NCBI RefSeq assembly: GCF_000226565.1
Contig: NC_016041.1
Location: 1,364,001 to 1,428,000, forward strand
DNA from: Glaciecola nitratireducens FR1064
Lineage (GTDB): Bacteria; Pseudomonadota; Gammaproteobacteria; Enterobacterales; Alteromonadaceae
Direction of reading: 5' to 3'
DNA: 64,000 nucleotides
The notes below the pieces were generated by a model. It had not been told where the DNA came from and did not search any database. It saw only the letters and a list, made by a program, of their open reading frames with translations. Both the position numbers and the translations under genes were made by a program. This document shows, piece by piece, positions 1,478 to 20,851 of this stretch (positions are counted from its first letter, which is position 1; each line of letters starts with the position of its first letter).

Positions 1478-1651
1478 ATGAATGAGCAAATTCTGACCCT
1501 TAAAGAAGTCGCAGAATACTTAAAGCTTACGGAGAAAACAGCTTATAGACTAGCAGCTGATAAAAAGCTGCCAGGTTTCAAAGTAGGGGGGAGTTGGCGT
1601 TTTAGAAAAGAAGATCTTGAAAAATGGATTGAGGCACAAAAGGACATATGA
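1478..1651 (+). CDS. mad1: Excisionase-family HTH DNA-binding protein (MAD1-like)
   Basis: This is a single helix-turn-helix domain of the MerR/excisionase type, filling all 57 residues. It carries the family pattern LTLKEVAEYLKLTEKTAY, then the wing GGSWRFRKEDLEKWI. Such small proteins bind DNA as regulators. As first gene of the operon it is the natural candidate for controlling it, and the MADS system as I know it begins with an HTH protein, MAD1. The ATG at 1478 has AGAG nine bases upstream. An in-frame ATG at 1469 sits too close to that site but cannot be excluded. The stop codon overlaps the ATG of the next gene (ATGATG at 1648-1653). Direct TTCCC repeats 10 bp apart lie just upstream at 1429-1443. 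Confidence 0.75.
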   Translation: MNEQILTLKEVAEYLKLTEKTAYRLAADKKLPGFKVGGSWRFRKEDLEKWIEAQKDI

Positions 1652-3318
1652 TGCACTTACCTGAACCGAAAAACTTACCTTACAAAACACTTTTAGCTGA
1701 TATTGAAAAAGGGCTAATTAAAATACCTCAATTTCAACGCGATTACGTCTGGAGCAAAGAACGAGCTGCGGGACTAATCGATAGTATTCTGAAGGGATAC
1801 CCAATTGGGACCTTCATCACTTGGAAGACGAAAGAAACACTGCGTGTTGTTAAAGACTTAGGTGGTGTTGTTTTACCTCCTGTGCCTGAAGGTGATTTCG
1901 CCGAGTACGTATTAGATGGTCAACAACGCATGACTAGCCTTTTTTGTGCGCTTAAAGGTGTACAGATTAAAAGAGGCAAAAAAACAGATGACTTTGCAGA
2001 AATCTTTGTCGACTTAAATGCTTCAGAACATGACCAAATTGTTGTTATTGATACCGCAGATCTAGAACAAGGTACCTATATATCCTTGACCAACCTAATT
2101 AATGCTGGGCTAACTGTTTTAGCTAGCTTTGATGCGAAATACCACGCTAAGTTGGAAGAGTACAAACAAACATTACAAGGCTATAACTTTTCGCTAATCG
2201 AAGTGAAAGAAGCTCCTTTAGATGTCGCAACAGAAATCTTTACTCGCATCAATGTTGGCGGTAAACCGCTTTCATTGTTTGAAATTATGGTCGCTAAGAC
2301 ATTTGATGCAACAGAAGAATTTGACCTTTCAGAAAAGTTTGAAGCGCTCGTTAATAGACTTCGCGAGGTAGGATACGACACCATATCTGATGCTACAGTC
2401 CTTCAAATTATTGCACTTGTAATAGGCAAAGAATGCAAACGACAGAACATACTACGTTTAGACAAAAAGCGTTTTATTGAAGAATGGCCAAAAGTAGCCA
2501 GCGCAATTGAATCAGCTGTAGATTATTTCAGAGGGTACTACCGTATTCCGGTTTCTAAGCTATTACCTTATAACTCACTACTCGCGCCTTTTGCTTATTT
2601 CTTTTATCACCACAACGATAAACCGTTAAACAATAAACAAATTTGCTTAGAGGATTTCTTTTGGCGAGTGAGCTTAGGTGGCCGCTACTCAAGCTCTGTT
2701 GAAGGTAAGTTGGCGCAAGATATAAAACGTATAGATCAAATATTGGGTGATTCTAAACCAAGCTATGATTGGGCAATAGATACATCAGCACAGTTCATCA
2801 AAGACAATGGTTGGTTCAACGCTGGTCGCAGCTATATTAAAGCAATACTTTGCATCATGGCGTATCAGCAACCTAAGTCGTTTATTGATGGCTCTATAGT
2901 GCACATCAGCAATGATTGGTTAAAACAAGCCAATAGCCGTAACTATCATCATTACTTCCCCAGGGCATTTTTACGCAAGCAAGGCTTGGGAGATGAGCAT
3001 AGTAACCATATCGGTAATATTACCATCGTTGATGATTTCCTGAATAAACGAAAAATAGGGGCTCAATCTCCATTTGTATATATGAGTCAATTTGCGGATC
3101 AAAATTGCGATCTAGAAACCCATATGAAAACCCATCTAATTGAACTAAATGAATGGGGGATTTGGGAAGATAACTACGACGCTTTTTTAACTAAGCGCTG
3201 TGAAAAACTATCAGAAGAAATTAAGAAGCGTCTTGTTCTGCGTGAGCAAGACAGAAACTCCCATCAAAGTATAAACATTGAAGACATTGATGAATTAGCA
3301 CTAGAAGCTGATTTATAA
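1648..3318 (+). CDS. GmrSD-like DUF262 / HNH (DUF1524-type) protein
   Basis: This is a 556-aa single-chain protein of the GmrSD/BrxU type. The N-terminal DUF262 domain (about 10-250) has a ParB-like nucleotide-binding fold with IPQFQRDYVWS (about 27-37) and the signature DGQQR at about 88-93. The C-terminal half carries an HNH-like nuclease motif: YHHYFPRAFL at about 431-440, then NHIGNITIV and a final NKRKIGAQSP. GmrSD enzymes use nucleotide hydrolysis to cut DNA with modified cytosines, such as glucosylated hydroxymethylcytosine of T-even phages. That role is inferred here, not shown. The gene overlaps the HTH gene and precedes the methyltransferase by 22 bases, so it belongs to the operon. 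I do not count it among the eight canonical MADS genes. The start may be the ATG at 1648 or the one at 1651; AGGA at 1641 suits the second slightly better. Confidence 0.8.
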   Translation: MMHLPEPKNLPYKTLLADIEKGLIKIPQFQRDYVWSKERAAGLIDSILKGYPIGTFITWKTKETLRVVKDLGGVVLPPVPEGDFAEYVLDGQQRMTSLFCALKGVQIKRGKKTDDFAEIFVDLNASEHDQIVVIDTADLEQGTYISLTNLINAGLTVLASFDAKYHAKLEEYKQTLQGYNFSLIEVKEAPLDVATEIFTRINVGGKPLSLFEIMVAKTFDATEEFDLSEKFEALVNRLREVGYDTISDATVLQIIALVIGKECKRQNILRLDKKRFIEEWPKVASAIESAVDYFRGYYRIPVSKLLPYNSLLAPFAYFFYHHNDKPLNNKQICLEDFFWRVSLGGRYSSSVEGKLAQDIKRIDQILGDSKPSYDWAIDTSAQFIKDNGWFNAGRSYIKAILCIMAYQQPKSFIDGSIVHISNDWLKQANSRNYHHYFPRAFLRKQGLGDEHSNHIGNITIVDDFLNKRKIGAQSPFVYMSQFADQNCDLETHMKTHLIELNEWGIWEDNYDAFLTKRCEKLSEEIKKRLVLREQDRNSHQSINIEDIDELALEADL

Positions 3319-3340
3319 CCACAGATTATTGAGTATTAAA

Positions 3341-5392
3341 ATGACAGACACCACAAATAAAGAACAAAAAGTATTAGCAATTGAAGATGGAATGTTGCTC
3401 GATTATTTAACCAATAATCCAATTAAGCAGACACCAAAAGAATTGGTTCGTCAGAAAACGCTTAGGGCTTTATTTCATGAATATGGCATAAGCGCAGAAG
3501 ATATGGCGCTTGATGTGCCTATTACGATTGCTGGTAAACGTAAGAAAATTGATATTGCGATATTCGAGCATGGTGCGGAACATTTACTTGAAAATATTCG
3601 TCGAATTGTTATTTGTGATAAAGCACCTAAGCAAGGTAAAAAATCTGCCGTCAAGTTGCGAGATCACGAACAAGCGCAAAAAGATCTTCAACTTATGGAA
3701 GACATGATGCGTGAGCAAGTAAGTGATAAATACGTGTTAGCCAAATGTCATTGGGGTTTATGGACTAATGGCATGGAATTTTTCTTTGTTGAAAAAGAAG
3801 AGTCCCGCTTCGATACGAAATTTAAAGCGGTAGGCGATTGGCCATTTGCAGATGAAACCATGGGTAGCCGAGATGTAGCTTCAAATGCTCAGTTAAGAAC
3901 AGCAGACAGAGAAATGCTATTAACTGCATTTCGCCGTTGTCATAATTACATCCATGGTAATGAAGGGATGCCAAAAGATGCAGCGTTTTGGCAGTTTTTA
4001 TATCTGATTTTTTCAAAAATGTTCGATGAACGCATAGGTAATAAACAGCGTGAATTTTGGGCGTCACCAACAGAGCAGTTTGATGATGAAGGCCGTAAAG
4101 AAATTCGAAAACGTATCGAGCCACTATTTGAAAAAGTAAAAAAACAATATCCCGAAATATTTAAAGGTAATGAAGAAATTACGCTTTCTGATCGGGCATT
4201 GTCTTTCATGGTGTCCGAATTAGCCAAATATGACTTTTCTCGCACCGAAATGGATGCCAAAGGTGCTGCATATCAAGAAGTTGTGGGTGATAACTTACGC
4301 GGTGACCGAGGACAATACTTTACACCTCGTGGTGCAATCAAATTAATTGTAGAAATGATGGCACCTCAACCACATGAAAAGGTACTTGATCCGTCTTGCG
4401 GAACCGGTGGATTCTTAGAGCAAACATTAAGCTTTATAAACCGTAAATTACATGAAGAAGAGAAAGTAAAACTGGGTGCAGAGACTACTGAAGAGTTTGT
4501 TTCAATACAACAGCGGATAAAAGAATTTGCACAAAACAATTTATTTGGTTGTGATTTTGACCCCTTTCTTTGTCGCGCATCGCAAATGAACGCAGTCATG
4601 GCGAGTAATGCTATGGCTAATATATTCCATATGAACTCGCTAGAATATCCGCATGGCCACTTAACTGGTGTAGAAACCGCCAAATCTAAAATACCTGTAG
4701 GAGACTCCAGCGGCAAGGATGGCAGTGTTGATGTCATCTTAACTAACCCTCCATTTGGTTCAGATATCCCAGTTACTGATAAGCAAATTCTTGAGCAATA
4801 CGACTTAGCTTTTACATGGGAGCGAACAGAAGATGGCGGCTTTAGAAAAACAAACCGACGTAAAGATGCAGTTTCCCCTGAAATACTGTTTATCGAACGT
4901 TGTGTTCAATGGCTAAAGCAAGGTGGTCGTATGGGTATTGTGTTACCTGATGGTATTTTAGGTAATCCGGGTGATGAATATATTCGTTGGTGGTTAATGC
5001 AGGAGTGCTGGGTATTAGGCTGCGTAGATTTGCCTGTAGAGTCATTTATAGTTGAAGCTAACGTCAACATTTTAACAAGTTTGTTATTCCTCAAGAAAAA
5101 AACAGACAGTGAAAAAGATGCTATTGCACTTGATGAAGAACCGGAATATCCGGTATTTATGGCGGTTGCTGAAAAGGTAGGTTTTGATCGTCGAGGCAAT
5201 ACGCTTTACGAACGCCATCCTGACGGTGAAGAAAAAGTTATTGAAGAAGAAGTTGAAGAACGCATTCGTATAAACGGCCAAAATGTTGTTCGCAAATTAA
5301 AACGTCGTAGCAAAATTCTCGATGATGATTTACCAAAAATAGCAAAAGCGTATAAAGAATTTAGAACACAAAATCCGGAGCCTTCTATATGA
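3341..5392 (+). CDS. mad2: N6-adenine DNA methyltransferase (HsdM-like, MAD2-like)
   Basis: This 683-aa methyltransferase would transfer a methyl group from S-adenosylmethionine to adenine in host DNA, marking self. The SAM-binding motif DPSCGTGGF lies at about 348-356 and the catalytic NPPF at about 469-472, the gamma-class order of type I HsdM. The first 160 residues resemble the N-terminal domain of type I R subunits (KIDIAIF at about 70). The place where a nuclease would have ExK reads ICDKAP, so the nuclease site looks degenerate. The middle (about 200-340) is the HsdM N-terminal helical region. The ATG at 3341 is preferred over an upstream TTG at 3329, although the ribosome site is weak. 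The stop overlaps the next ATG by 4 bases. Target recognition should come from the HsdS-like gene at 7341. Confidence 0.85.
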   Translation: MTDTTNKEQKVLAIEDGMLLDYLTNNPIKQTPKELVRQKTLRALFHEYGISAEDMALDVPITIAGKRKKIDIAIFEHGAEHLLENIRRIVICDKAPKQGKKSAVKLRDHEQAQKDLQLMEDMMREQVSDKYVLAKCHWGLWTNGMEFFFVEKEESRFDTKFKAVGDWPFADETMGSRDVASNAQLRTADREMLLTAFRRCHNYIHGNEGMPKDAAFWQFLYLIFSKMFDERIGNKQREFWASPTEQFDDEGRKEIRKRIEPLFEKVKKQYPEIFKGNEEITLSDRALSFMVSELAKYDFSRTEMDAKGAAYQEVVGDNLRGDRGQYFTPRGAIKLIVEMMAPQPHEKVLDPSCGTGGFLEQTLSFINRKLHEEEKVKLGAETTEEFVSIQQRIKEFAQNNLFGCDFDPFLCRASQMNAVMASNAMANIFHMNSLEYPHGHLTGVETAKSKIPVGDSSGKDGSVDVILTNPPFGSDIPVTDKQILEQYDLAFTWERTEDGGFRKTNRRKDAVSPEILFIERCVQWLKQGGRMGIVLPDGILGNPGDEYIRWWLMQECWVLGCVDLPVESFIVEANVNILTSLLFLKKKTDSEKDAIALDEEPEYPVFMAVAEKVGFDRRGNTLYERHPDGEEKVIEEEVEERIRINGQNVVRKLKRRSKILDDDLPKIAKAYKEFRTQNPEPSI

Positions 5393-6684
5393 TATCGAGG
5401 ATAGAAGCCTACAAATATCGGTGTTTTAATACGTTAGACCTAGCGTTAGAGCTACAGCATGTATTTGCAGGCTCGAACGGTTCCGGCAAGACTACCTTGC
5501 TTGATATACCTGCGTTATTAGGTGACCTTCTTAACGTTACAGATATTAATGATGCTTTTTTTAAACCGGTAAACGGCAGAGATAGAGCCAGAGCAGAAGA
5601 GGCCAAAGAAGTTGTTCATCAACTGCGTGGTGATTATTTTATATTAGCGATAGAAGTTAAATTGCCACCTTCTATTATTGAAGAATTACTTCGAGATGCG
5701 AGCGACGCTTGGCAGAAAAAGTTTCAAAGTGTTGAATTAAGACCAGATACCGCTAGATATGAAGTTTCTCTCAGAATCAATGAGGCTAAGTTTCAAGTTA
5801 CAGAAGAACACTTATTGCTTTTCCCTGATAATGAATCACGCCCTCAACATGGTATGGGATTAGTCGGGGTCAATGAGTTCAGTCGAACTTCACCGTGGTT
5901 TAAAGTTTTTTCACGAAGCTTTGGCACTAAAGTGAAATATCAAGCAGAGTATCAAAGCGGTAAATCTTCGATGCTTGAGTTTGGTTTACGTGATAATCAA
6001 TTGGCGCTTTCATCTATTCCTGCTGATTACGATCTATATCCGGCAGCGCTTTGGTTGCAAGAGTTTCTAATGCAAAGTACTCATTGTTACGAGCCTCAAT
6101 GGCCAGCAATGAGGCAAGCTGCCTCACCACGTGATAAAACGTGCTTCAAGGCAGATGGGAGTAGTTTGCCTTGGCAAGTTTTTGAATTGCAAACGAAAGA
6201 GCCTGAAGGATTAAACGAGTGGCTAGAACTTGTTCAAATGGCTTTACCTTCAATTAAAACGATAACTGCGAAAAAGCGACAAGATGATGGGTTTTGCTAT
6301 CTTGAAGTTACTTACAACAACGATATGAAGGTCCCTTCAAGTGGTTTATCACATGGTACGTTACATATTTTAGCATTGACAATAATTCCTTATTTGCAAA
6401 CCCCTCCCAACATCATAACCCTTGAAGAGCCTGAGAATGGGATTCATCCCAAAGCTATTGATGCTGTGTTGGAAGCATTAAAGTTAACGTCAGATACTCA
6501 ACTTTGGTTGTCTACACATTCGCCTGTTGTTTTAGCAAATTCAAAGCTAGAACAAATTATCACTATGAGATTCAACAATGATGGATCTACCGAAGTGCTA
6601 AAAGGTAGCGAGCACCCTCGATTAAAAGAGTGGAAGGGAGAGGTAGATTTAGGGACGTTATTCGCCGCTGGAGTGTTGGAGTAA
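5389..6684 (+). CDS. mad3: OLD/RecF-like AAA ATPase (MAD3-like)
   Basis: This 431-aa ATPase is of the ABC/SMC-like class seen in OLD-family defence proteins. The Walker A GSNGSGKT is at about 28-36. A signature-like SSGLSHGT lies at about 316-323, the Walker B region ITLEEPENGIHP at about 345-356, and the switch histidine in LWLSTHSPVV at about 374-383. There is no TOPRIM nuclease domain on the same chain, as there is in full OLD proteins. The next gene, 3 bases downstream, could supply it. The start overlaps the methyltransferase stop (ATGA at 5389). In MADS the AAA ATPase after the methyltransferase is MAD3. A role in sensing or acting on invading DNA is inferred. Confidence 0.8.
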   Translation: MISRIEAYKYRCFNTLDLALELQHVFAGSNGSGKTTLLDIPALLGDLLNVTDINDAFFKPVNGRDRARAEEAKEVVHQLRGDYFILAIEVKLPPSIIEELLRDASDAWQKKFQSVELRPDTARYEVSLRINEAKFQVTEEHLLLFPDNESRPQHGMGLVGVNEFSRTSPWFKVFSRSFGTKVKYQAEYQSGKSSMLEFGLRDNQLALSSIPADYDLYPAALWLQEFLMQSTHCYEPQWPAMRQAASPRDKTCFKADGSSLPWQVFELQTKEPEGLNEWLELVQMALPSIKTITAKKRQDDGFCYLEVTYNNDMKVPSSGLSHGTLHILALTIIPYLQTPPNIITLEEPENGIHPKAIDAVLEALKLTSDTQLWLSTHSPVVLANSKLEQIITMRFNNDGSTEVLKGSEHPRLKEWKGEVDLGTLFAAGVLE

Positions 6685-6687
6685 TTT

Positions 6688-7344
6688 ATGAGAGATATAA
6701 TTTTTTTAGTTGCTGATGGCGAGATGCAGGCAACTGTGGAAGGTTTTTTTGAAAATCAAGCGTTTGATCAAAGGCTACAGTGCACTAGATTCGAATTTGA
6801 TACCAAGCAAGATTTGATTAAGCACCCAAGAAAAGATGCTGGCGTTTATCAAGATGGTCATAACCTTTTGAAGAGTTACATAGGTACTCACCAATATGCT
6901 GTCGTCATGGTTGACTTTGCTTTTAATGATAATTTAGAAATGATGGATTACGAACAGTTTTGTGAAAATATAAAGGCAAAAATGCTAAAAGCTGGGTGGC
7001 CTGAAGAACGTTTTTTTATCATGGCAATCAATCCAGAATTAGAAGTACTTATGTGGCAAAACGATACCAAACGAATTGAATCAGTATTTGATTTCCAAGG
7101 CGAGAGTGGCGGACTGAGAGCTTGGTTGCAAGAGCGCAACTTATGGGATGAAGGCCTTATTAAACCGCAAGACCCAAAAGCTGCCATAGATATAGTAAGA
7201 GGACAATGCTGGGGACGCAAAAAAACGCATTCCCAAATATTTAAACGTATTGCAAAAGACGTGTCTTTTAAAGGTTGTGAAGATGAGTCTTTTAATGGCT
7301 TATTGCAACAAATACAAGTTTGGTATCCGAGGCGGTACGCATGA
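6688..7344 (+). CDS. mad4: TOPRIM/DUF4276-like partner of the ATPase (MAD4-like)
   Basis: This 218-aa protein has no strong named domain to my eye, but its layout resembles the TOPRIM-like DUF4276/RloB group. A first beta strand ends in an acidic turn (IIFLVADGEMQ, residues 4-14). A hydrophobic strand follows with aspartates (AVVMVDFAFND, about 71-81), then NPELEVLMW (about 113-121), similar to the PExW-like motif of that group. Such proteins are often paired with an ABC-type ATPase like the one encoded 3 bases upstream, forming a split OLD-like nuclease. It sits where MAD4 sits in MADS. The nuclease role is inference from pattern and pairing. The stop overlaps the next start (ATGA at 7341). 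Confidence 0.65.
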   Translation: MRDIIFLVADGEMQATVEGFFENQAFDQRLQCTRFEFDTKQDLIKHPRKDAGVYQDGHNLLKSYIGTHQYAVVMVDFAFNDNLEMMDYEQFCENIKAKMLKAGWPEERFFIMAINPELEVLMWQNDTKRIESVFDFQGESGGLRAWLQERNLWDEGLIKPQDPKAAIDIVRGQCWGRKKTHSQIFKRIAKDVSFKGCEDESFNGLLQQIQVWYPRRYA

Positions 7345-8741
7345 AGGTTAAAACTTTAAATAGTAAATGGATACATGAAGCGAATTATAGGTTAGATAGT
7401 AATCCCTACATGACAGGGGCTATCGAAGCAAGGGTGATAATCAAGGCAGCACAACTGGTCAAGCATGAACTGGTAAACGTGACTAAAGGGGGGATGAAAG
7501 GGTTAATAAACCCAGGCCGTATAAAAAGGATTTGGGCGAAGTCTAACGAATATGGAATAGACTTCCTTTCAAGTACAGATATTTTAAAGAAAAATTTGAG
7601 CTATATAAGTGCCATATCTAAAAAAGCGGTATCCGAAAACCCCAAGTTAATAATAAATTATGGAGACATATTAATAACTAGGGCCGGAAGTATTGGACGA
7701 ATGGCTTTTACTAGAAAAGATATTGATGGTTTTGCATGCACCGAAGACGTGCTCAGAGTCGTTGCTGACGAGAGTAAAATTTCAAATGGTTATCTATATG
7801 CTTACCTTAGAAGTAAATTCGGTGTTCCTCTAATAATCTCTTCGACATATGGGGCTATCATCCAACATATTGAACCTCATCATTTGGCGGATCTACCAGT
7901 ACCGAGATTAAGTGACCTTTTGGAGCTAAAAGTTAATAATTTGATTTTAGAGGCATCAGATTTACGCACCAAAGCTAATAAAATAATAGAGGAATCTAAA
8001 CTCAAAATTTGCGAATTAATTGGTGAGATTGAACATTTAACTAGCACAGATGTTCTAAACTGCAATGTGATATCTAGCTTCGATCTTAGATCATCAAAAA
8101 GATTAGATGTTTTGTACTACGCAAAAGAACCTCTAAAAATTATTACTAAATTAAAAAATAACGAATTTCGCTTATTGAAGGAAGTTTCTAGTGTAGTTAA
8201 GCCAGGGATGTTTAAAAGAATAATGAGTACAAAGGAAAATAATGGTATACCTTTTTACACAGGTAGCGAGTTATTTTTAACTGATTTAAAACCTAAATAC
8301 TACGTTTCAAAGAAAACACAACATATTGAGCAATGTATACTGCAAGAAAACTGGATTCTCTTGCAAGCGTTTGGGCAACGAGGAGGGTTAATTGGTAGAG
8401 CAATGTTAACAACTCCAAAGCTTAAAAATGCAGCTGCAACAGATTTACAGATTCAAATAAAATTACCAGATAAATTTGATGCTGGATTTATACTGGCATT
8501 TTTAGATTCTAAACCAGGTTATTCAACAGTAGTAAGAACACCAGTAGGTGGTTCTATTCCCCACATAAATCCAAGAGACATCGAAAATTTAGTTGTACCT
8601 TGGCCTTCTAAAGCTATCAGGAATGTAATTGGTGAAAATGTTCTTATTGCATGGCAATCAAGGGATAAAGCACAGGAGTTAGAAGAGGAAGCAATAAAAA
8701 TTGTAGAAAATTCAATAGAGGCAGCAGCGCCAAAACATTAA
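7341..8741 (+). CDS. mad5: Type I restriction specificity subunit S (MAD5-like)
   Basis: This 466-aa protein is HsdS-like. It has two target-recognition domains (about 20-190 and 245-420), each followed by a long helical spacer (about 195-235 and 435-466), the pseudo-symmetric layout of S subunits. It would hold the DNA sequence specificity for the methyltransferase encoded at 3341. Short HsdS signatures are visible, including GDILITRAGSIGR and the VGGSIPHINP-type end of the second domain. No R-subunit helicase gene is nearby, so restriction would have to come from other proteins of the operon. The ATG at 7341 overlaps the previous stop; an in-frame GTG at 7320 is less likely. MADS carries an S subunit at this position as MAD5. 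Confidence 0.85.
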   Translation: MKVKTLNSKWIHEANYRLDSNPYMTGAIEARVIIKAAQLVKHELVNVTKGGMKGLINPGRIKRIWAKSNEYGIDFLSSTDILKKNLSYISAISKKAVSENPKLIINYGDILITRAGSIGRMAFTRKDIDGFACTEDVLRVVADESKISNGYLYAYLRSKFGVPLIISSTYGAIIQHIEPHHLADLPVPRLSDLLELKVNNLILEASDLRTKANKIIEESKLKICELIGEIEHLTSTDVLNCNVISSFDLRSSKRLDVLYYAKEPLKIITKLKNNEFRLLKEVSSVVKPGMFKRIMSTKENNGIPFYTGSELFLTDLKPKYYVSKKTQHIEQCILQENWILLQAFGQRGGLIGRAMLTTPKLKNAAATDLQIQIKLPDKFDAGFILAFLDSKPGYSTVVRTPVGGSIPHINPRDIENLVVPWPSKAIRNVIGENVLIAWQSRDKAQELEEEAIKIVENSIEAAAPKH

Positions 8742-8750
8742 GGAGATTTC

Positions 8751-12890: not shown

Positions 12891-14533
12891 AATTAGGAAA
12901 AAAAGATAAAGCTTTTCGTACGAATAAAGTGAGCTACCTCGATTTCAAAATCGTAGAAATGGATCGGGTTTTAACGCACTTGTTTGCACGGCTAAAGCAT
13001 AACGGCGCATCTAGCAAATTGAGTGCTAAAGGCATGACTGTTGGTTTGTTTAAAGAAGAATTTTTAGACTCTCGAAACGAGAAACATTTTAAGGGTTTTT
13101 CTCAGGCACCAATCACAGTTGAAAAGTGGATAGAAACGCATTTAGTTGATCTTATTAATAGAGGTAAAGCAAACGAAGCGGTTGCTGCGCCTAGGCCGTT
13201 GCATGGCAATACTTATTTATTTAGGAATCCTAAGAACTGTCGTGACTATGGTGCTTCAAAGCAAGTGTATGAATTGCTGTACCACGCTAAAAATGGCCAA
13301 GCGGCTATCACTCGATTGAAACAGTTTTTCTTTGCTGGCGTAGATTCATCCACTGGTCAGTATGATTGTCAATCTCAGGTTGATGTTGAAACTCAAGCGT
13401 TATTGCGGTTGTCTGATCAGGTGAAATCTGATGCTCCCGACCATTCAGATTTACAAGAGAGGTTTGCTCCTCTTAATCAGCAAGCAGCAGATATTTTAGC
13501 TGATGATATCATTAAGTTGATGACTTACCGTCAGTATATTCCTCGCTCAGTAATGGTTGAATACATTAAAAATCTACTAGCGTTTCACTTAGCGTTATAC
13601 CAGCTAAAACTATTTAAATTGTTGCCCGCTTTAGCAAAAAGTAAAGGGCAAAACCTAGAAGAAAGTGAAAGGCAAAAAACAGCGATATTTGTCGACATGA
13701 CAAATGGTACTAATAACAAATGTCATCAAATGGCAGAGCAAAGTGCCACTTTGCACTACAAGCGCATCCCGTCATTTATTAAGGCCTATTTTGGTGTGAA
13801 GAAGCTTGACGAATTTGCCGAATACTTATCTAAGAAAGGCAAACTATCTGGTTCAAAGTCAATTAAACAAATGCCTGTTACGGAATTGTTTAAATTACTT
13901 GAATCTCCACTTGAGCGGGATAGAGACCAATTTTTTGGTCAACGTAATGCTGGCATCTTAGATGTTTCAGTTTCGTCGGCCAATAAGTCTGATGAGATCC
14001 CTCCAGAACTGCACGCTATCACTCAACTTGGATTACCAGAATTTGAAACATACATCGAAATTTTATTATTCGTTCAAGGAAATGCTATTCGTTCGGGACT
14101 AGTGAAGAACTTAGACAGTTTTATGTTGAAAAATAAGCCAGGTGCTTTATTAGAGCAAACCAATGGTTCGTATGGCGGTAGGCGGTTTTGCTTGGACGGC
14201 AGGTTATTAGAGGTAATGTTACAACTCGCTGTATTATCAAAGGGCGGTGATTTAGGGTTTCACACTAAAGAACTTAGAGTAGATCAGTTGTTGACCTTTT
14301 TGCAAACGCGATACGGTATTTATATTGATTCACTACCAGAAACTGACACCTTTTGTGATCAATCGATCGATGTGAATAGTGCTTTAAGAGAAAATTTGGT
14401 TGGATTTAAACGTAGATTAAGGGAGATTGGATTTTATCGAGATCTTTCAGATGCATATGTAACTCAAACTGTAACTCCTAGATATCAAATAGATAAAAAT
14501 CAAAACGAAAAAGCACAAGGAAGTAAAGCATGA
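12887..14533 (+). CDS. mad7: MADS-associated protein of unknown function (MAD7-like)
   Basis: This is a 548-aa protein in which I recognise no domain. It appears soluble and mostly helical, basic at the front (KLGKKDKAFRTNK) and at the end. The middle (about 200-330) is lysine- and glutamine-rich with several amphipathic helices. Its start overlaps the kinase stop and its stop overlaps the ATG of the next gene, each by 4 bases, so translation is probably coupled and the three products are likely made in fixed ratio. A protein of unknown function occupies this slot in MADS as MAD7. No function is proposed beyond membership of the system. Confidence 0.65.
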   Translation: MKLGKKDKAFRTNKVSYLDFKIVEMDRVLTHLFARLKHNGASSKLSAKGMTVGLFKEEFLDSRNEKHFKGFSQAPITVEKWIETHLVDLINRGKANEAVAAPRPLHGNTYLFRNPKNCRDYGASKQVYELLYHAKNGQAAITRLKQFFFAGVDSSTGQYDCQSQVDVETQALLRLSDQVKSDAPDHSDLQERFAPLNQQAADILADDIIKLMTYRQYIPRSVMVEYIKNLLAFHLALYQLKLFKLLPALAKSKGQNLEESERQKTAIFVDMTNGTNNKCHQMAEQSATLHYKRIPSFIKAYFGVKKLDEFAEYLSKKGKLSGSKSIKQMPVTELFKLLESPLERDRDQFFGQRNAGILDVSVSSANKSDEIPPELHAITQLGLPEFETYIEILLFVQGNAIRSGLVKNLDSFMLKNKPGALLEQTNGSYGGRRFCLDGRLLEVMLQLAVLSKGGDLGFHTKELRVDQLLTFLQTRYGIYIDSLPETDTFCDQSIDVNSALRENLVGFKRRLREIGFYRDLSDAYVTQTVTPRYQIDKNQNEKAQGSKA

Positions 14534-17500
14534 TTAAGGGTATTCAAACTGTAACAAGTGCTGATATCGATAAGAGTTTAATTAATGTACTTTTGCCAAA
14601 ACTAAAAGTTTTGTTAGAGACTCGTGGTGTTGGGCATTGTATGAAAGTTTCGGATCTAGAAACCAATTTAATGTACAAGCTGTGTGAACAGTTAGCTAAG
14701 GAGGTTGACCACTGTCAGGTAGCTGTATTAACCGATGGTACACACGAGCAATGTTCGGTTTCTAGCACCAAGTTGGTTGAACTTAGAAATCCAGACGAGC
14801 ACGGAAATTTGCGTCCGCCTTTATTGGTATTTGTGCCCAATGACTTACGAACATCTTCTGAAGATTCATTTGGTGTTGCAACATTTGAGCATGTAAATAT
14901 TACTGATGTTTATTCTTTAGCATTTCAAAAAATTAAAACTCAATGCCCAGATAATATTGCTCAGTTAATTGATGAAACACTTTTTATCTTAAAAGAAAAA
15001 GCGTCTCTAAATCTGGGTGCTTATCAATGGTTAAGATACCTATTAACAATTCAATTGAATGGTTTTGAACCTAGTATTATTGGTGCTGCACTTTACGAAT
15101 TAGGATTGATACCTGATTTAGAGTTGCACAATGATCACGCAGCACTACTAAGGCGTTTGGTTAGAAATCATGAATCAATCCACATAATCAAAAAATCAGA
15201 TAAATCTGCCATTGCTACTGTTTATGATTTGCAGCTTGAAGGTAACGATTTTAACAAAAAGTTAGCTTTATTCCTTAATGAGCAGGAAAACCTACTAGAC
15301 AATAATTGGCGAAAGCAACTTGTAGTTGATAGCAATAATTGGCCACTAACATTTGATAAATGGCGTTTCCAATATGAAGAAGAAGCGACCGATGCCGTTT
15401 GTCTTACCGTTACTGATATCGAGTTGCCTACCATACCTGAAAATGAAGCGGATCCAAATCTTCAACAACTAATAGGTCAACAAGTATTGACTGTGGGACA
15501 GGGGGGATTGAAAAAATTCTCCGTGTCTTTTTCTGTTGAGCCTAAACCAAGTGAAATAAATGGATTAGCGAAATATAAAGCACAAGTTTTTTCTAAACAA
15601 GGTGACTTTGTTGGTTTGATTAAAGCTGGGAAATCGACAACAAAGCCCACTGTTACAATTACTTTTAATAAACTCACTGGAATTGAATGGGAAGAAGGTT
15701 GGCACTACATTAGGGTTCAGGCGTTTGATGAAAACGAAGAATTGTTGCCTCTAGTCGATGAGAATAACAATCCAATACCCTGGGGAACGTCCAGTGAGGA
15801 GCAGGCTGGCTCTCGCATTAACGAAAGCGAGTTGTTCTATGTATTACCAGCAGTGGATGCCGAAGTTGAGCCTATTCCAGGTAGAAAAGTGCGAGAGGCG
15901 TCACTAGCTCATGCAAAGATTAAGGCTGAGTTTACGACTGTAATTGATACTGCAAAATTTACAAATGCAGAAGTAATAGACGTTCATTGGCAAGATACTA
16001 AGAGCAAGTCAGAATCGATTGTCAATATTAAGTTTAAAAAAGGGGGCAGTGTTCAAGTACCTGTAAATACCTACCTGAAGGATTTCGAACAAAAGCTGCT
16101 AGCTAACCCCATGGCAGCGGTGACATGGCGCATTGAGATTAGGAATGAACAAGCACAGCAGCCAGGCGGTGATTTAATCGATTGGCCAATTGATGGTGTT
16201 GAAAGTCAATTTAAAGTCTTTAAAGAGGCACGAGAACGTTACTTCGGGTTAATTTCCCAAGGAGATAAAACTTTAGTTTCTGTCGCACATGATCATGTTG
16301 CAACAACCAATGAAGCTTATTTATATTCCAACGCATACTTAGAATACTTAGCCGCTGTATTTCAGAAAACCGAAAATGGTCATGATTATGCGGCAGAACT
16401 ATCCGCGTTACTTCGCTTAGATTCTATTTCAATAGTGATATGGAATTATGATGGTACTTATAAGCAAGCAATGCTTTTAGGTCCTACTCATCCATTGAGG
16501 TGCCTATGGCTAGGTGGCTGGTCATCTCTTGCTGAATCATGGGCAAGACAAAGTGAAAAGGTTACTAAAGAGATTGCAGTAGGTAGTAAGAACAGCCTTT
16601 TGGAGGAGTTATCTTTAACAAACTTCCCGTATGTACTACCTGATTATCAAGGTCAGCTAATGGTAGCTCTTGATAGTATCCATCCCTTTTGGAGCGTACT
16701 GGCATCGTCACAAGAAAAGGAGCCGCAATCTCTCATTGATAAGATAAAAACTGCGATGGGAATAAAAAATGACTATCAGCAAGTTGGGAAGCAGAGCAGC
16801 ACTTACTTGGCTACTAAGGTTGAGCGTTATTTAGTGCAACATCCCTATGTAACTTGCCTGTCTATTAACGTTTTTAACGCTGGTTCAGCTAGTGCCGTAG
16901 CAGGAATGTTAATAGCACTTAGGAAAAAACAAGAATTAAAGCATATTTGTTTCGATATACGTTTGTTTGTTTCTGACCCATACGCTGTGGAAGTAGGCGC
17001 CGATTTATTTAAATTGATAAATAGTAATGATGAATCCAGCCAAGATAATGAATTATTTCATTCCTCAGACAACCATTTGGTGCCTAGACTTAGTATATCT
17101 TTGCGGTCTATAGCTGAATTTGAAGAATCGCCTGAAGATTTTAGTGCTAATTTGAGTATGTTGTTTGATGTGTTTCCTGCTGAAGAATTATCAGTGATTA
17201 GGCCGCAGGCTGATGAGCAGGTAGCTCCAGTGCATGGGTTGTATCAAGATTATGCTGTTGACTACTTGGATGAAAATGGCGTCATTGCTTGGGACAGACA
17301 TACACGCCATGGTTCTGCAAAAATGTTGTTCGGTGGTCAAATTTCTTCGACGGTAGCTAAATTGCCTAAGATGATGTCAACAATAACGGCCTCTCTTGCT
17401 ACAGGGAATTTCTCACTAGATCAGGTACCAGTTGTGCGGTTATCTCTCGATGCAGCCGAAAGAGCTTTGTTGAACCAACTTCATGAGGTAAGTGATTGGG

Positions 17501-19944
17501 TCTTTACGGTAGATCGTAATTTAGGGATCGAGTTTTTTGATCACGGTGGTAAGGATGGTCGACCGGACTACTTGATTGATCATAGTCCGGAAATGGCTTC
17601 TTCGAATTCACACAATTTTGTTATCACCTCTCGCTCAACTACAGAAATAGAAGCTCTTTTGAAAGGTACTTTGGAGCAACATCAGATTGTGCCAGATGTG
17701 AAGAAGGCGACGAAGGTTCTAGATTCACTAAGAGCTCTATCTGGAAGATTAGCACTTAAATTAGCATCGAATAGTGCTTCTAAGACTGAAGCCCTGGGAT
17801 TGGCTTTGTCTAAGTTGTATTTGGAATACCAGGGTGTGTTTCACGATCAAGTTGTGGTGCCTTTAGACGCGCATCTTGAACTCTATTCCGAATTACAGAA
17901 AGCAGATGGCGAATTAGGTGCGGAAATTAGCTTTAAACGAACCGATTTAGCACTGTTTGATTTAGATGCGTCTTCTAGAACAATTAGATGTAATTTGATT
18001 GAAGTGAAATGTTATTCCGAAGTCGGGGATTTAACGAAATACGAAAGCCTCAAAAAGAGTATAGCCACCCAGATATCTGAATCAGAACGCGTTTTACAGC
18101 GGCACTTTGATTTAACTAGAACCTCGCCGGATAGACCTGATCGTTTGGTTAAGACACAAAAATTATGTGTACTACTTGAGCACTATTTAAAACGCTCTGA
18201 GCGATTTGGCTTATTAGGATCCGATATTGTTGATGAAGCTAAGTATCTACTTCGTACCCTTGAACAAGGGTACAAGTTAGCTATTACACGCAGTGCTATT
18301 ATCTTCGATTTTGGGCAGGATAGTACTGGTGTTGAAAATGAGGTGGGTATTGAGTTTCACCGAGTAGGTAGAAATCATATCGATGAATTACTGTCTGCTA
18401 CTGTTCCTGAAAATGATGACGATTTGAGTGAAGCTACATTAGACTCTTTGGACTTGTCACTGCCTAAACTAAGTACTGCGGAGTTTTTACACAAAGAAAG
18501 GGACAGAACGATTTCTTGGGATGAACTCGCTTCTCAAGCATCCATTGAGTTGCCAGTAGTGCAAAGTGTTGATGAAAATAATACTAATACTATTAAAGCC
18601 AAGCCCATTGATAATGAAGTTCTAACATCTGAAAAAGATGGTGTCGAAACAATAAAAGAGCCTAGTATTACCTCTAAATTAATTGAAGATGATGTTGCAG
18701 AGCCAGAGCCAGAGCCAGGAAATCCAAGTATGACTGGTGATATTAAGGATGTTCCTTATGATATTGTCTTAGGTGTTAATGAAAGCTCAGCTCAATATGG
18801 TTTATTAGGTGAAGTACATGGCCGTAAAATAGCGTTAGATTTAAATCATACGCACACGATAAGTTTGTTTGGTGTACAGGGGGGCGGGAAGAGTTACACC
18901 CTAGGATCAGTTGTTGAAATGGCGACTAAATCAATTCCTTCTATAAATACTTTACATAAAGAACTTGCGAGCGTGATCTTTCACTACAGCCAAACTCAAG
19001 ACTATAAGCCTGAGTTCACATCAATGATCGCACCTAATGATGATGCGTCCCAAATTGCGAAATTAAAGAAAGTTTACGGGGCTGAGCCAACATCTTTAGA
19101 CGACGTTGTTTTATTAACGCCTGAAGATAAATTGGAAGAACGACGCTCTGAATATCCTGGTATAGAAGTTTATCCATTAAAGTTTTGTTCTTCAGAACTT
19201 CAAGCTGGACATTGGAAATTCTTAATGGGAGCTATCGGCAATCAGGCTGCTTATATTCGCCAGTTAGGCAATATTATGCGTAAAAACCGTAAGAATTTGA
19301 CGATTGAGACCATCAGGAATGGTATTCAGAACTCTAGCTTATCTGACACACTAAAAGATTTGGCTGATATGAGGTTGGATTTTGCTGAGCAATATATTGA
19401 CGATACGTTAAGCGTAGCTTCTTTGATTAAACCCGGCAGAATGATTATTGTCGATGTTAGAGATGAGTTCATCGAAAAGGACGAAGCGCTAGGATTATTT
19501 GTTGTTCTTCTACAAATATTCTCGGAAGCAAAATATGAAAATCAAACATTCAACAAGTTAATTGTTTTTGACGAATGTCATAAGTACATAGACAGTCCTG
19601 ATTTGGTAAAAGGGCTGGTTGAGACGGTTCGAGAAATGAGACACAAAGGGACTAGCGTAATGATAGCTAGCCAAGATCCGCCCTCTGTTCCAGTAGAATT
19701 AATTCAACTATCTTCACAGATCATTTTGCACAAATTTAATGCGCCCGATTGGTTGAAGCATATTCAAAAGGCTTGTATCGGATTGAAATCACTTTCATCT
19801 GAAAAACTTGGCTCTTTGAACCCAGGTGAAGCTTATATTTGGTCAAGTAAAGCAAGTGACAACGCCTTCGTTAGTGATGCTATGAAAATTCAATGTAGAC
19901 CAAGAGTAACTAAGCACGGTGGGGACACATTGACAGCGGTTTAA
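14530..19944 (+). CDS. mad8: Giant HerA/FtsK-type ATPase with PD-(D/E)XK-like region (MAD8-like)
   Basis: This 1804-aa protein is the last and largest of the operon. The C-terminal 380 residues are a HerA/FtsK-superfamily motor: Walker A GVQGGGKS at about 1447-1454, Walker B LIVFDECHKYI at about 1676-1686, and ASQDPPSVP at about 1715. Upstream lies a stretch typical of PD-(D/E)XK nucleases: Asp1139 in RTDLALFDL, then IEVKCY with Glu1158 and Lys1160. A low-complexity acidic linker with EPEPEPG (about 1395) joins the two. The first 1100 residues are not recognised; part looks beta-rich (about 330-560). A nuclease plus HerA motor in one chain would parallel HerA-NurA. The nuclease call is inference from the motif. 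It corresponds to MAD8, the ATP-binding protein. Confidence 0.8.
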   Translation: MIKGIQTVTSADIDKSLINVLLPKLKVLLETRGVGHCMKVSDLETNLMYKLCEQLAKEVDHCQVAVLTDGTHEQCSVSSTKLVELRNPDEHGNLRPPLLVFVPNDLRTSSEDSFGVATFEHVNITDVYSLAFQKIKTQCPDNIAQLIDETLFILKEKASLNLGAYQWLRYLLTIQLNGFEPSIIGAALYELGLIPDLELHNDHAALLRRLVRNHESIHIIKKSDKSAIATVYDLQLEGNDFNKKLALFLNEQENLLDNNWRKQLVVDSNNWPLTFDKWRFQYEEEATDAVCLTVTDIELPTIPENEADPNLQQLIGQQVLTVGQGGLKKFSVSFSVEPKPSEINGLAKYKAQVFSKQGDFVGLIKAGKSTTKPTVTITFNKLTGIEWEEGWHYIRVQAFDENEELLPLVDENNNPIPWGTSSEEQAGSRINESELFYVLPAVDAEVEPIPGRKVREASLAHAKIKAEFTTVIDTAKFTNAEVIDVHWQDTKSKSESIVNIKFKKGGSVQVPVNTYLKDFEQKLLANPMAAVTWRIEIRNEQAQQPGGDLIDWPIDGVESQFKVFKEARERYFGLISQGDKTLVSVAHDHVATTNEAYLYSNAYLEYLAAVFQKTENGHDYAAELSALLRLDSISIVIWNYDGTYKQAMLLGPTHPLRCLWLGGWSSLAESWARQSEKVTKEIAVGSKNSLLEELSLTNFPYVLPDYQGQLMVALDSIHPFWSVLASSQEKEPQSLIDKIKTAMGIKNDYQQVGKQSSTYLATKVERYLVQHPYVTCLSINVFNAGSASAVAGMLIALRKKQELKHICFDIRLFVSDPYAVEVGADLFKLINSNDESSQDNELFHSSDNHLVPRLSISLRSIAEFEESPEDFSANLSMLFDVFPAEELSVIRPQADEQVAPVHGLYQDYAVDYLDENGVIAWDRHTRHGSAKMLFGGQISSTVAKLPKMMSTITASLATGNFSLDQVPVVRLSLDAAERALLNQLHEVSDWVFTVDRNLGIEFFDHGGKDGRPDYLIDHSPEMASSNSHNFVITSRSTTEIEALLKGTLEQHQIVPDVKKATKVLDSLRALSGRLALKLASNSASKTEALGLALSKLYLEYQGVFHDQVVVPLDAHLELYSELQKADGELGAEISFKRTDLALFDLDASSRTIRCNLIEVKCYSEVGDLTKYESLKKSIATQISESERVLQRHFDLTRTSPDRPDRLVKTQKLCVLLEHYLKRSERFGLLGSDIVDEAKYLLRTLEQGYKLAITRSAIIFDFGQDSTGVENEVGIEFHRVGRNHIDELLSATVPENDDDLSEATLDSLDLSLPKLSTAEFLHKERDRTISWDELASQASIELPVVQSVDENNTNTIKAKPIDNEVLTSEKDGVETIKEPSITSKLIEDDVAEPEPEPGNPSMTGDIKDVPYDIVLGVNESSAQYGLLGEVHGRKIALDLNHTHTISLFGVQGGGKSYTLGSVVEMATKSIPSINTLHKELASVIFHYSQTQDYKPEFTSMIAPNDDASQIAKLKKVYGAEPTSLDDVVLLTPEDKLEERRSEYPGIEVYPLKFCSSELQAGHWKFLMGAIGNQAAYIRQLGNIMRKNRKNLTIETIRNGIQNSSLSDTLKDLADMRLDFAEQYIDDTLSVASLIKPGRMIIVDVRDEFIEKDEALGLFVVLLQIFSEAKYENQTFNKLIVFDECHKYIDSPDLVKGLVETVREMRHKGTSVMIASQDPPSVPVELIQLSSQIILHKFNAPDWLKHIQKACIGLKSLSSEKLGSLNPGEAYIWSSKASDNAFVSDAMKIQCRPRVTKHGGDTLTAV

Positions 19945-20038
19945 AGTGAGGTTTTTGTGCTGATCAAATTAAAACTATGCTACGGCAAATGTATACGTAG
20001 CAATAGTTTTGCTGAATTTATTTTCTTGGGTGACGTTA

Positions 20039-20851
20039 GTGATAGAGAAATATCAAGTTGGTGATTCATATGTATGGATTCCTGTGGCAAAAGAGACCAA
20101 AGGGAATGGGGTAAGAGCTTTCCTACCTTTCAATGGACTAGATGGGACTTATCTTCACGGGTATAAAGCAAGGATATCAGAGTCGAAATACTTAGACGCA
20201 CTTAGTGATATACAAAGAGCATATATCGAGAATGAGAACGAGGTTTTCTCGGTTAACAAAGGCGCAAAAGACGAAAGGCAATATAAAGCTAAGTGGCGTC
20301 ATGGAAGGGAACAAAATGCACCGCTTTTAGGGCCCACTAAAGGATGGGTCAAAGTGAAATTGAACCGGATTCAATATTTAAAGGACAGCGAACTTGGTAT
20401 GGCTTTAGACAAATCTAGTGATAGATATTGTCAAGTTGAGGATTTCACTTTTAAACCTGTATTATGTAACTCTGCCGAAGAGCTAATTGAAAAAGCCGAA
20501 AATCTTAAAGAAAAAATTGGAGACAGAATTCCTGATGGTCAAAGGGTACCTAATAAATGCACTACTAGCCAAGAGGCATTTATCAGAGATGCAGCGGTAG
20601 TCGCTTATGTATTGGGCGTAGCAAATGGAAGTTGTGAATGTTGCGGTGAAAAGTCTCCATTTATTAAATTCAATGGTGAGTCCTACCTTGAGGTTCACCA
20701 TGTCAGACATCTGGCAAAAGGCGGTAGTGACACTATTTCCAATGCAATTGCGATATGTCCAAATTGCCATCGGGAATTACACTTTGGCATCGATAGTAAT
20801 TTACTTGTTGAAAAGTTGTATTTAAAGGTAGATAGATTAATTCGTGAGTGA
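20039..20851 (+). CDS. HNH endonuclease with zinc-binding cysteines
   Basis: This is a protein of about 270 aa with a C-terminal HNH nuclease domain. It has CECCGE at about 199-204, LEVHHVRHLAKGG at about 219-231 and CPNCHRELHFG at about 240-250, so it keeps the paired CxxC zinc ligands and the catalytic histidines. The N-terminal 170 residues are not recognised and may bind DNA or modified bases. GTG at 20039 with GGGTGA 8 bases upstream is my preferred start; a TTG at 20009 is possible. It begins 95 bases after the large operon and is probably a separate defence gene. Its 3' end overlaps an IS3 remnant on the other strand, but the domain looks complete. Confidence 0.75.
   Translation: MIEKYQVGDSYVWIPVAKETKGNGVRAFLPFNGLDGTYLHGYKARISESKYLDALSDIQRAYIENENEVFSVNKGAKDERQYKAKWRHGREQNAPLLGPTKGWVKVKLNRIQYLKDSELGMALDKSSDRYCQVEDFTFKPVLCNSAEELIEKAENLKEKIGDRIPDGQRVPNKCTTSQEAFIRDAAVVAYVLGVANGSCECCGEKSPFIKFNGESYLEVHHVRHLAKGGSDTISNAIAICPNCHRELHFGIDSNLLVEKLYLKVDRLIRE

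What the first reader, a model, noticed from the sequence alone, without database searches (positions are those of the whole stretch)
1478..19944. Complete MADS-type operon (mad1-mad8) of about 18.5 kb
Order and content (HTH, N6-MTase, AAA ATPase, TOPRIM-like, HsdS, NERD-kinase, unknown, HerA ATPase) match the methylation-associated defence system as I know it. Most junctions overlap by 4 bases, so the operon looks intact and expressed as a unit.
Basis: partly seen in the sequence, partly recalled or inferred. Interest (0 to 1): 0.8.

Follow-up and report, generated by a model that had tools for sequence, protein, structure and literature searches.

The report
Nine-gene MADS phage-defence operon

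Summary
The claim of a complete MADS operon holds: all eight NCBIfam MADS equivalogs pass their curated cut-offs, in order, on one strand, frames open; PADLOC agrees; PglW and HsdM fall far below cut-off. Overlooked: a ninth gene, a GmrSD-type DUF262 protein (1648-3318), between mad1 and mad2. Of 68 surveyed loci with mad2, three have it there (window, Alginatibacterium, Cellvibrionaceae); two 58-59% relatives inspected stand alone on plasmids. Comparison adds two points. MAD6's C-terminus, MAD7 and MAD8 are colinear with SspF-SspG-SspH of phosphorothioate restriction, with an invariant PD-(D/E)XK motif in MAD8, so MADS most likely restricts through a DndFGH-like machine steered by N6-adenine methylation. 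And mad3-mad4 (OLD/Toprim-like pair) is exchangeable: present in 31, absent in 36, undetermined in 12 of 79 loci, at least 7 switches on a MAD7 tree. Known system; new variant with a stacked accessory nuclease. The mechanism is inferred; in both other DUF262-bearing operons one mad gene reads as two pieces; the founding paper could not be read.

The parts
1478..1651 (+). mad1: excisionase-type HTH protein (in-frame ATG also at 1469)
   Evidence: NCBIfam NF047737 86.9 bits (cut-off 80); PADLOC mad1 3e-10; Pfam HTH_17
1648..3318 (+). extra gene not in the MADS list: DUF262/GmrSD_N protein, 556 aa, with VLDGQQR motif and C-terminal HH...N...N HNH-like pattern
   Evidence: Pfam GmrSD_N 8e-32; PADLOC PDC-M55C 6e-55; best PDB sequence match 7p9k, DUF262 domain-containing protein, 5e-14; these positions identical in all 7 aligned sequences, window included
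3329..5392 (+). mad2: N6-adenine DNA methyltransferase, NPPF at residue 473
   Evidence: NF047738 1031 bits (cut-off 720); Pfam N6_Mtase, and an HSDR_N_2 stretch at residues 36-82; motif
5389..6684 (+). mad3: AAA/ABC-type ATPase of the OLD/AriA kind
   Evidence: NF047739 549.5 (cut-off 420); Pfam AAA_21; PADLOC AriA 7.7e-23
6688..7344 (+). mad4: Toprim-like putative nuclease partner of mad3
   Evidence: NF047734 235 (cut-off 160); AlphaFold model best PDB match OLD C-terminal region 6njw, E 3.4e-3
7341..8741 (+). mad5: HsdS-like specificity subunit (ATG 7341 overlapping the mad4 stop preferred to TTG 7320)
   Evidence: NF047740 488.7 (cut-off 400); Pfam Methylase_S; sequence
8751..12890 (+). 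mad6: NERD nuclease + pseudokinase + Ser/Thr kinase + DndF/SspF-like P-loop domain, 1379 aa
   Evidence: NF047741 755 (cut-off 460) over residues 1-626; residues 744-1379 match SspF 9e-30 and residues 790-1379 by hhalign 97.6%; catalytic residues invariant in 65 of 65
12887..14533 (+). mad7: DndG/SspG-like protein, 548 aa
   Evidence: NF047733 627 (cut-off 410); PADLOC SspG 3.3e-9
14530..19944 (+). mad8: DndH/SspH-like protein, 1804 aa: methyltransferase-fold region without catalytic motif, PD-(D/E)XK-type motif D1139-E1158-K1160, C-terminal HerA-type ATPase
   Evidence: NF047742 237 (cut-off 175) over residues 35-236; PADLOC mad8 over residues 1410-1802 and DndH/SspH about 1e-5; motif residues 68 of 68; hhalign to SspH 76.6%
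20009..20851 (+). neighbouring McrA-type HNH gene (start codon uncertain); adjacent, not shown to belong to the operon
   Evidence: Pfam HNH 4e-12; best PDB sequence match 6ghc, 5-methylcytosine-specific restriction enzyme A, 1.2e-27 over residues 174-277; seen after mad8 only in the window among 78 loci with mad8, of which 8 hold under 1 kb beyond mad8

Best explanation
This is an intact, probably horizontally acquired methylation-associated defence system (MADS) with an extra GmrSD-type nuclease gene built into its operon. Most likely working: MAD2 with the specificity subunit MAD5 methylates adenine at one sequence motif and so marks host DNA. MAD6 (NERD nuclease, pseudokinase, Ser/Thr kinase, nucleotide-binding F domain), MAD7 (DNA-binding G subunit) and MAD8 (dead methyltransferase fold, PD-(D/E)XK nuclease, HerA translocase) form a DndFGH/SspFGH-like complex that scans DNA, moves along unmarked DNA and cuts or nicks it; phosphorylation by MAD6 sets its activity. 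MAD3-MAD4 (ATPase plus Toprim nuclease, OLD/PARIS style) and the DUF262 nuclease are add-on effectors, the former acting if the main system is disturbed, the latter probably against phage DNA that carries other modifications. Shown here: membership, gene order, colinear homology to SspFGH, intact catalytic motifs, presence/absence switching of mad3-mad4 and of DUF262. Inferred: every step of the action.
For: All eight MADS equivalog cut-offs met. PADLOC agrees: SspF 9e-30, SspG 3e-9, DndH/SspH about 1e-5. Invariant residues: MAD8 D1139, E1158, K1160 and Walker A G1448, G1453, K1454, S1455 in 68 of 68; MAD6 kinase K537, H628, D630, K632, N635, D647 and P-loop 848-855 in 65 of 65. [DNS]PP[YFW] is in 58 of 59 MAD2 but only 2 of 68 MAD8, at residues 162 and 315, while the MAD8 560-1295 model matches methyltransferase folds. 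No MAD7 match in the 12 other same-genus genomes searched.
Against: No function was measured. The match of MAD7 to the single SspG (56.6%) and of MAD8 to the single SspH (76.6%) is moderate. Foldseek's listed matches for the MAD8 region are mainly methyltransferase folds with low query TM-score (0.17 for the best) and no nuclease among the 50 rows shown, so the nuclease rests on the motif. The MAD4 Toprim assignment rests on one weak structural match. In the two other DUF262-bearing operons one gene reads as two pieces (mad8 in L010, mad6 in L014), so the DUF262 variant is seen fully intact only in the window. The methylated motif is unknown. I could not read the founding MADS paper, so what it tested gene by gene is recalled only.
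Confidence: 0.7

Rival explanations
1. It is a BREX type 2 (Pgl) or type I restriction-modification locus rather than MADS.
For: MAD6 shares NERD + tandem kinase with PglW (167 bits); MAD2 and MAD5 resemble HsdM and HsdS; MAD2 has an HSDR_N_2 stretch.
Against: PglW 167 bits against cut-off 990; HsdM 33 against 243; PglZ, BrxC or an HsdR helicase are not among the listed hits of the operon's genes; all eight MADS cut-offs are met.
Confidence: 0.02
2. The DUF262 gene is a passenger or self-contained solo defence gene that shares the promoter, with no functional link to MADS.
For: Two relatives at 58-59% identity sit on Sulfitobacter-type plasmids with no MADS gene annotated within 8 kb; 24 loci have mad1 directly next to mad2.
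Against: It occupies the same slot, tightly packed, in three operons whose DUF262 copies are 77-92% identical, so the arrangement has been kept over divergence; other lineages place AbiEi-AbiEii (4 loci) or DUF6577 (3 loci) upstream of mad2.
Confidence: 0.4
3. The DUF262 protein is a mark-sensing effector of MADS itself, like SspE in phosphorothioate systems, switched by 6mA marks laid by MAD2-MAD5.
For: SspE models match the N-terminus (best 6.4e-7); SspE is reported to sense phosphorothioate marks (start of abstract of PMC13251355 in the listing).
Against: PDC-M55C (6e-55) scores far better than SspE among PADLOC models, and the first PDB match is 7p9k; it occurs without MADS; most surveyed operons lack it.
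Confidence: 0.15
4. The operon is a decayed, non-functional remnant.
For: Several relatives have split or frameshifted genes, among them both other DUF262-bearing operons (L010 mad8, L014 mad6) and L048 and L080.
Against: In the window every frame is open, overlaps are kept and all scores are at family level.
Confidence: 0.04

Closest known systems
MADS, methylation-associated defence system (Maestri et al. 2024; paper not held, known here through NCBIfam/PADLOC models and passages of citing papers)
   Same: All eight families above cut-off and in order
   Different: Ninth gene (DUF262/GmrSD) between mad1 and mad2; McrA-type HNH gene directly downstream
SspFGH / DndFGH phosphorothioate-linked restriction modules
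   Same: MAD6 C-terminus, MAD7, MAD8 are colinear homologues of F, G, H; nuclease-type motif and HerA ATPase conserved
   Different: Partner modification is N6-adenine methylation by an HsdM/HsdS-like pair, not phosphorothioation; F carries NERD and two kinase domains, as in a subset of DndF described in PMC10853773 (section 20 read)
PglW of BREX type 2
   Same: NERD + pseudokinase + kinase order at the N-terminus (PMC12839542 passages)
   Different: C-terminal half is DndF-like, and no other BREX gene is among the operon's listed hits above cut-off
OLD / PARIS ATPase-Toprim pairs
   Same: MAD3 ATPase (AriA model 7.7e-23) and MAD4 with OLD C-terminal fold; the grouping of MADS with such pairs is in print (PMC12409363 passage)
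   Different: Encoded inside a methylation operon; MAD4 matches no AriB model and no Pfam family at E 0.001
BrxU / GmrSD type IV restriction enzymes
   Same: DUF262 with DGQQR motif and HNH-like C-terminus; best PDB match 7p9k (that this entry is BrxU is recalled)
   Different: Embedded in MADS instead of BREX; substrate unknown

Membership tests
MADS | MAD1-MAD8 each above NCBIfam equivalog cut-off | tested here: met
   8 of 8
MADS | mad1-mad8 in order on one strand with short or overlapping junctions | tested here: met
   Order met, with one extra gene between mad1 and mad2
MADS | Operon of exactly eight genes | tested here: not met
   Nine genes; extra DUF262. I do not treat gene count as defining, because other loci also gain and lose genes
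MADS | MAD2/MAD5-dependent DNA methylation and phage restriction | not testable with these tools
   Needs long-read sequencing and phage assays
DndFGH/SspFGH | Three adjacent genes homologous to F, G, H in that order | tested here: met
   hhalign diagonal 97.6/56.6/76.6%, cross pairs at most 3.6%
DndFGH/SspFGH | Scores as a Dnd/Ssp component in curated models | tested here: inconclusive
   PADLOC matches for all three; no Dpt/Dnd F, G or H family among NCBIfam hits at E 0.01
DndFGH/SspFGH | Linked phosphorothioation genes | tested here: not met
   None among the listed hits of the operon's genes; the rest of the genome was not searched for them
BREX type 2 | PglW above cut-off, with PglX, PglZ, BrxC | tested here: not met
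   PglW 167/990; a BREX-6 PglX model 20/900 on MAD2; PglZ and BrxC not among the operon's listed hits
Type I R-M | HsdM equivalog above cut-off and HsdR present | tested here: not met
   HsdM 33/243; no HsdR gene, only an HSDR_N_2 stretch in MAD2
GmrSD type IV (DUF262 gene) | GmrSD_N domain above gathering score | tested here: met
   111.4 bits against 33.2
GmrSD type IV (DUF262 gene) | Cleaves modified (for example glucosylated 5hmC) DNA | not testable with these tools
   Biochemistry needed

The most novel reading that the evidence does not exclude
MADS is a DndFGH/SspFGH restriction machine re-coupled to N6-adenine methylation, built as a fixed core (MAD2, 5, 6, 7, 8) with open slots into which lineages plug different back-up effectors: OLD/Toprim pairs (mad3-mad4), GmrSD nucleases, Schlafen-AlbA proteins, AbiE pairs, a PP2C phosphatase. 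The window's operon stacks two such effectors. One could then swap epigenetic mark and effector independently.
Probability: 0.55. Interest if true: 0.55.

Novelty: new variant of a known kind. Interest (0 to 1): 0.38.

Why it matters
How MADS restricts DNA is listed as unknown in a 2026 review table (PMC12904381 passages). The colinear match to SspFGH and the invariant nuclease motif in MAD8 give a concrete, testable candidate. The repeated loss or gain of mad3-mad4 and the recruitment of a GmrSD nuclease suggest that MADS is a platform with exchangeable effectors, which would explain its size and matters for detection tools that demand all eight genes.

Tried and rejected
BREX type 2, type I R-M and plain DndFGH were considered and rejected as filing places on curated cut-offs. 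The idea that MAD6 or MAD8 of the window are unusual fusions, suggested by short family models (612 and 200 positions), was rejected: the plasmid-borne Piscinibacter operon has genes of the same size, and 65 MAD6 of at least 1250 aa and 68 MAD8 of at least 1650 aa were collected from the 79 loci.

PADLOC's mad2 model also rings on other genes of this window (23719-25521, 2.9e-14; 42416-44401, 1.4e-22), so its mad2 hit alone proves little. A search for an empty insertion site with two flank stretches in 20 relatives gave no clean left and right junction. Promoter and terminator scans were not informative (promoter-like 1 against 2.5 and 5 against 5.3 in shuffles; terminator-like 0 against 0.3 and 2 against 0.9). 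No direct repeats of 30 nt or more were reported in the window. A stand-alone mad3-mad4 pair was sought on plasmids: mad4 occurs in 1 record, the Piscinibacter MADS itself; a Geoalkalibacter mad3 relative (31%) has no mad4-like gene annotated beside it. PDB sequence search with the MAD7 alignment gave only one chance-level match.

Limits of the survey: the 73 loci came from two peptide patterns of MAD7 and were joined by 4 plasmid loci, G016 and the window, so the counts are not a census; 12 of 79 were undetermined for mad3-mad4; 4 of the 68 loci with mad2 (L053, L060, L074, L075) hold under 1.7 kb upstream and show no mad1, so DUF262 cannot be excluded there, and 8 loci hold under 1 kb after mad8. 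The tree used 72 of the 79 (MAD7 of at least 480 aa), of which 62 were classified; it is a 'quick' tree that warns of long branches. The greedy gene calling mislabels some genes in GC-rich loci; mad3-mad4 states were therefore taken from stop-to-stop segments. Profiles and conservation used only full-length rows.
Full report
What is there. The block is a single-strand operon of nine open genes. Eight match the MADS families in order: MAD1 86.9 bits (cut-off 80), MAD2 1031 (720), MAD3 549.5 (420), MAD4 235 (160), MAD5 488.7 (400), MAD6 755 (460), MAD7 627 (410), MAD8 237 (175). PADLOC mad1-mad8 models agree. Five of eight junctions are 4-bp overlaps, taking mad5 to start at ATG 7341. Chance is not a serious explanation for eight equivalogs in order; in 14 control genomes the MAD7 model rings in none.

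Surroundings. The window lies in a 4.13-Mb single-contig genome with one MAD7. None of the 12 other same-genus genomes searched has MAD7; of 60 genomes including its own, one other, G016 of the same family, has it. The MAD7 of G016 is 88% identical. The nearest MAD7 by tree is that of Alginatibacterium sediminis (89%), then Cycloclasticus, Amphritea and G016. This patchiness suggests horizontal acquisition, though no clean insertion site was found. Directly downstream is an McrA-type HNH gene (20009-20851), whose best PDB sequence match is 6ghc; it was seen after mad8 only in the window, with 8 loci too short there to tell.

The extra gene. The DUF262 protein has the DGQQR motif and a C-terminal HH...N...N pattern, identical in all 7 aligned sequences, window included. 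Of 79 loci, mad2 is detected in 68, and three have DUF262 directly upstream of mad2 with strong scores: the window, Alginatibacterium (91-92% identical) and Cellvibrionaceae AOL6 (77%). In 24 loci mad1 and mad2 are direct neighbours. DNA homology of the window with Cycloclasticus, Amphritea and G016 begins at mad2 (about 3360), whereas with Alginatibacterium it runs back to 1478. Two relatives at 58-59% identity, inspected with up to 8 kb on either side, sit on Sulfitobacter-type plasmids without annotated MADS genes; two further such hits (H14, H15) were not inspected. The simplest reading is that a solo nuclease was recruited into a MADS lineage. DUF262 labels downstream of mad8 in L042 and L050 are weak (18.7 and 21.9 bits) and I give them no weight. 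Against the picture of a thriving variant: in Alginatibacterium mad8, and in the Cellvibrionaceae operon mad6, read as two pieces.

The restriction core. I compared profiles of MAD2-MAD8 with F, G, H proteins of an SspFGH locus (L132, found with PADLOC's SspG model) and of two Rhizobium plasmids that carry a three-gene NERD-kinase-F, G, H set without an annotated MAD2-MAD5-like pair next to it (L134, L135). L134 and L135 were found through a MAD8 search, so their strong H match is expected; their F and G matches do not follow from that. Matching pairs: MAD6C-SspF 97.6%, MAD7-SspG 56.6%, MAD8-SspH 76.6%, and 97.4-100% for Rhizobium; every cross pair is at or below 3.6%. The MAD6 N-terminal part matches the Rhizobium F proteins (99.7-99.9%) but not SspF (0.1%), as expected since this 614-aa SspF is too short to hold the NERD and kinase domains. 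In families of 65 MAD6 and 68 MAD8, invariant residues are NERD D48 and K63, kinase K537, H628, D630, K632, N635, D647, P-loop 848-855; MAD8 D1139, E1158, K1160, Walker A G1448, G1453, K1454, S1455, and D1681/E1682 (67 of 67). The MAD8 560-1295 model (pLDDT 85.6) matches SAM methyltransferase folds (best E 1.6e-4, query TM-score 0.17), but the catalytic [DNS]PP[YFW] motif is in only 2 of 68 MAD8, outside that region, against 58 of 59 MAD2; no nuclease is among the 50 structural matches listed. This resembles the DndH layout described by Rakesh et al. (PMC10853773, sections 18-22 and 25 read), who also describe DndF with NERD and two kinase domains; a find for 'MADS' in that paper gave nothing.

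Is the link in print? Searches for MADS together with DndFGH, SspFGH, MAD7 or MAD8 returned papers that hold both names; the passages I read list both systems and do not equate them, and most listed papers I did not open. One Halococcus paper says that genes in a mixed category resemble MADS, phosphorothioation and BREX genes (passage). The founding paper is not held, and I recall only its abstract, which speaks of 'MADS-like systems', so I do not claim priority.

Exchangeable parts. mad3-mad4 is present in 31, absent in 36 and undetermined in 12 of 79 loci, with at least 7 changes on the MAD7 tree over 62 classified rows. In Aeromonas popoffii (L035) the homology to four loci that carry mad3-mad4 runs through mad2 (80-82% identity) and resumes in mad5, with mad6-mad8 77-88% identical. 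Of 30 Bacteroidota loci 26 lack mad3-mad4 and 4 are undetermined. Twenty-seven of 78 loci with mad8, all Bacteroidota, carry after it a relative of the L053 gene that Pfam calls PP2C. Eight of 68 loci with mad5 and mad6 carry a relative of a Schlafen-AlbA_2 protein between these two; four of the eight (L059, L064, L073, L074) were scanned against Pfam and all four match. AbiEi-AbiEii (4 loci) and DUF6577 (3 loci) occur upstream of mad2. MAD4's model best matches the C-terminal region of an OLD protein, E 3.4e-3.

How it works, most likely. Shown: composition, order, homology, intact motifs, presence/absence switching. Inferred: MAD2-MAD5 marks host DNA with 6mA; MAD6-MAD7-MAD8 scans and, under kinase control, translocates on and cuts unmarked DNA; MAD3-MAD4 and DUF262 are back-up effectors, DUF262 probably against phages with modified bases, as reported for BrxU (titles and abstract starts in the listing only).

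Verdict. A true, complete MADS operon: a known kind. New to me are the DUF262-bearing variant and the supported reading of its core as an FGH machine with exchangeable effector slots. Interest moderate.

Noticed in passing
window 20009-20851: McrA-type HNH gene 64 nt after mad8; best PDB match is 5-methylcytosine-specific restriction enzyme A over the HNH part only, about 170 N-terminal residues unassigned.
   Followed up: partly
window 23719-25521 and L009:13856-14559: Right-flank methyltransferase-HNH gene and a left-flank gene have relatives side by side on one contig of the same genus (G009:C8, 30615-32371 and 32598-33302), each with a second copy on that contig: a repeat-rich accessory region.
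   Followed up: no
window 42416-44401 and 23719-25521: PADLOC's mad2 model matches other genes of this window (1.4e-22 and 2.9e-14), a false-positive risk of that model.
   Followed up: partly
L134, L135 (Rhizobium plasmids): Three-gene NERD-kinase-F, G, H sets without MADS methyltransferase and specificity genes next to them; L135 has two other DNA methyltransferase genes downstream and L134 a type ISP restriction/modification gene further on. Possible stand-alone relatives of MAD6-7-8.
   Followed up: partly
27 Bacteroidota loci, after mad8: PP2C-type phosphatase gene next to the MAD6 kinase operon, suggesting a kinase-phosphatase switch.
   Followed up: partly
L010, L014, L048, L080: Relatives with split or frameshifted mad genes, perhaps decaying or phase-variable copies or assembly errors.
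   Followed up: no
G000:C1:1724475-1725131 and 1749655-1750341: Two further DUF262/GmrSD_N genes elsewhere in the same genome; a weak MAD2-like stretch lies close to the second (1751992).
   Followed up: no
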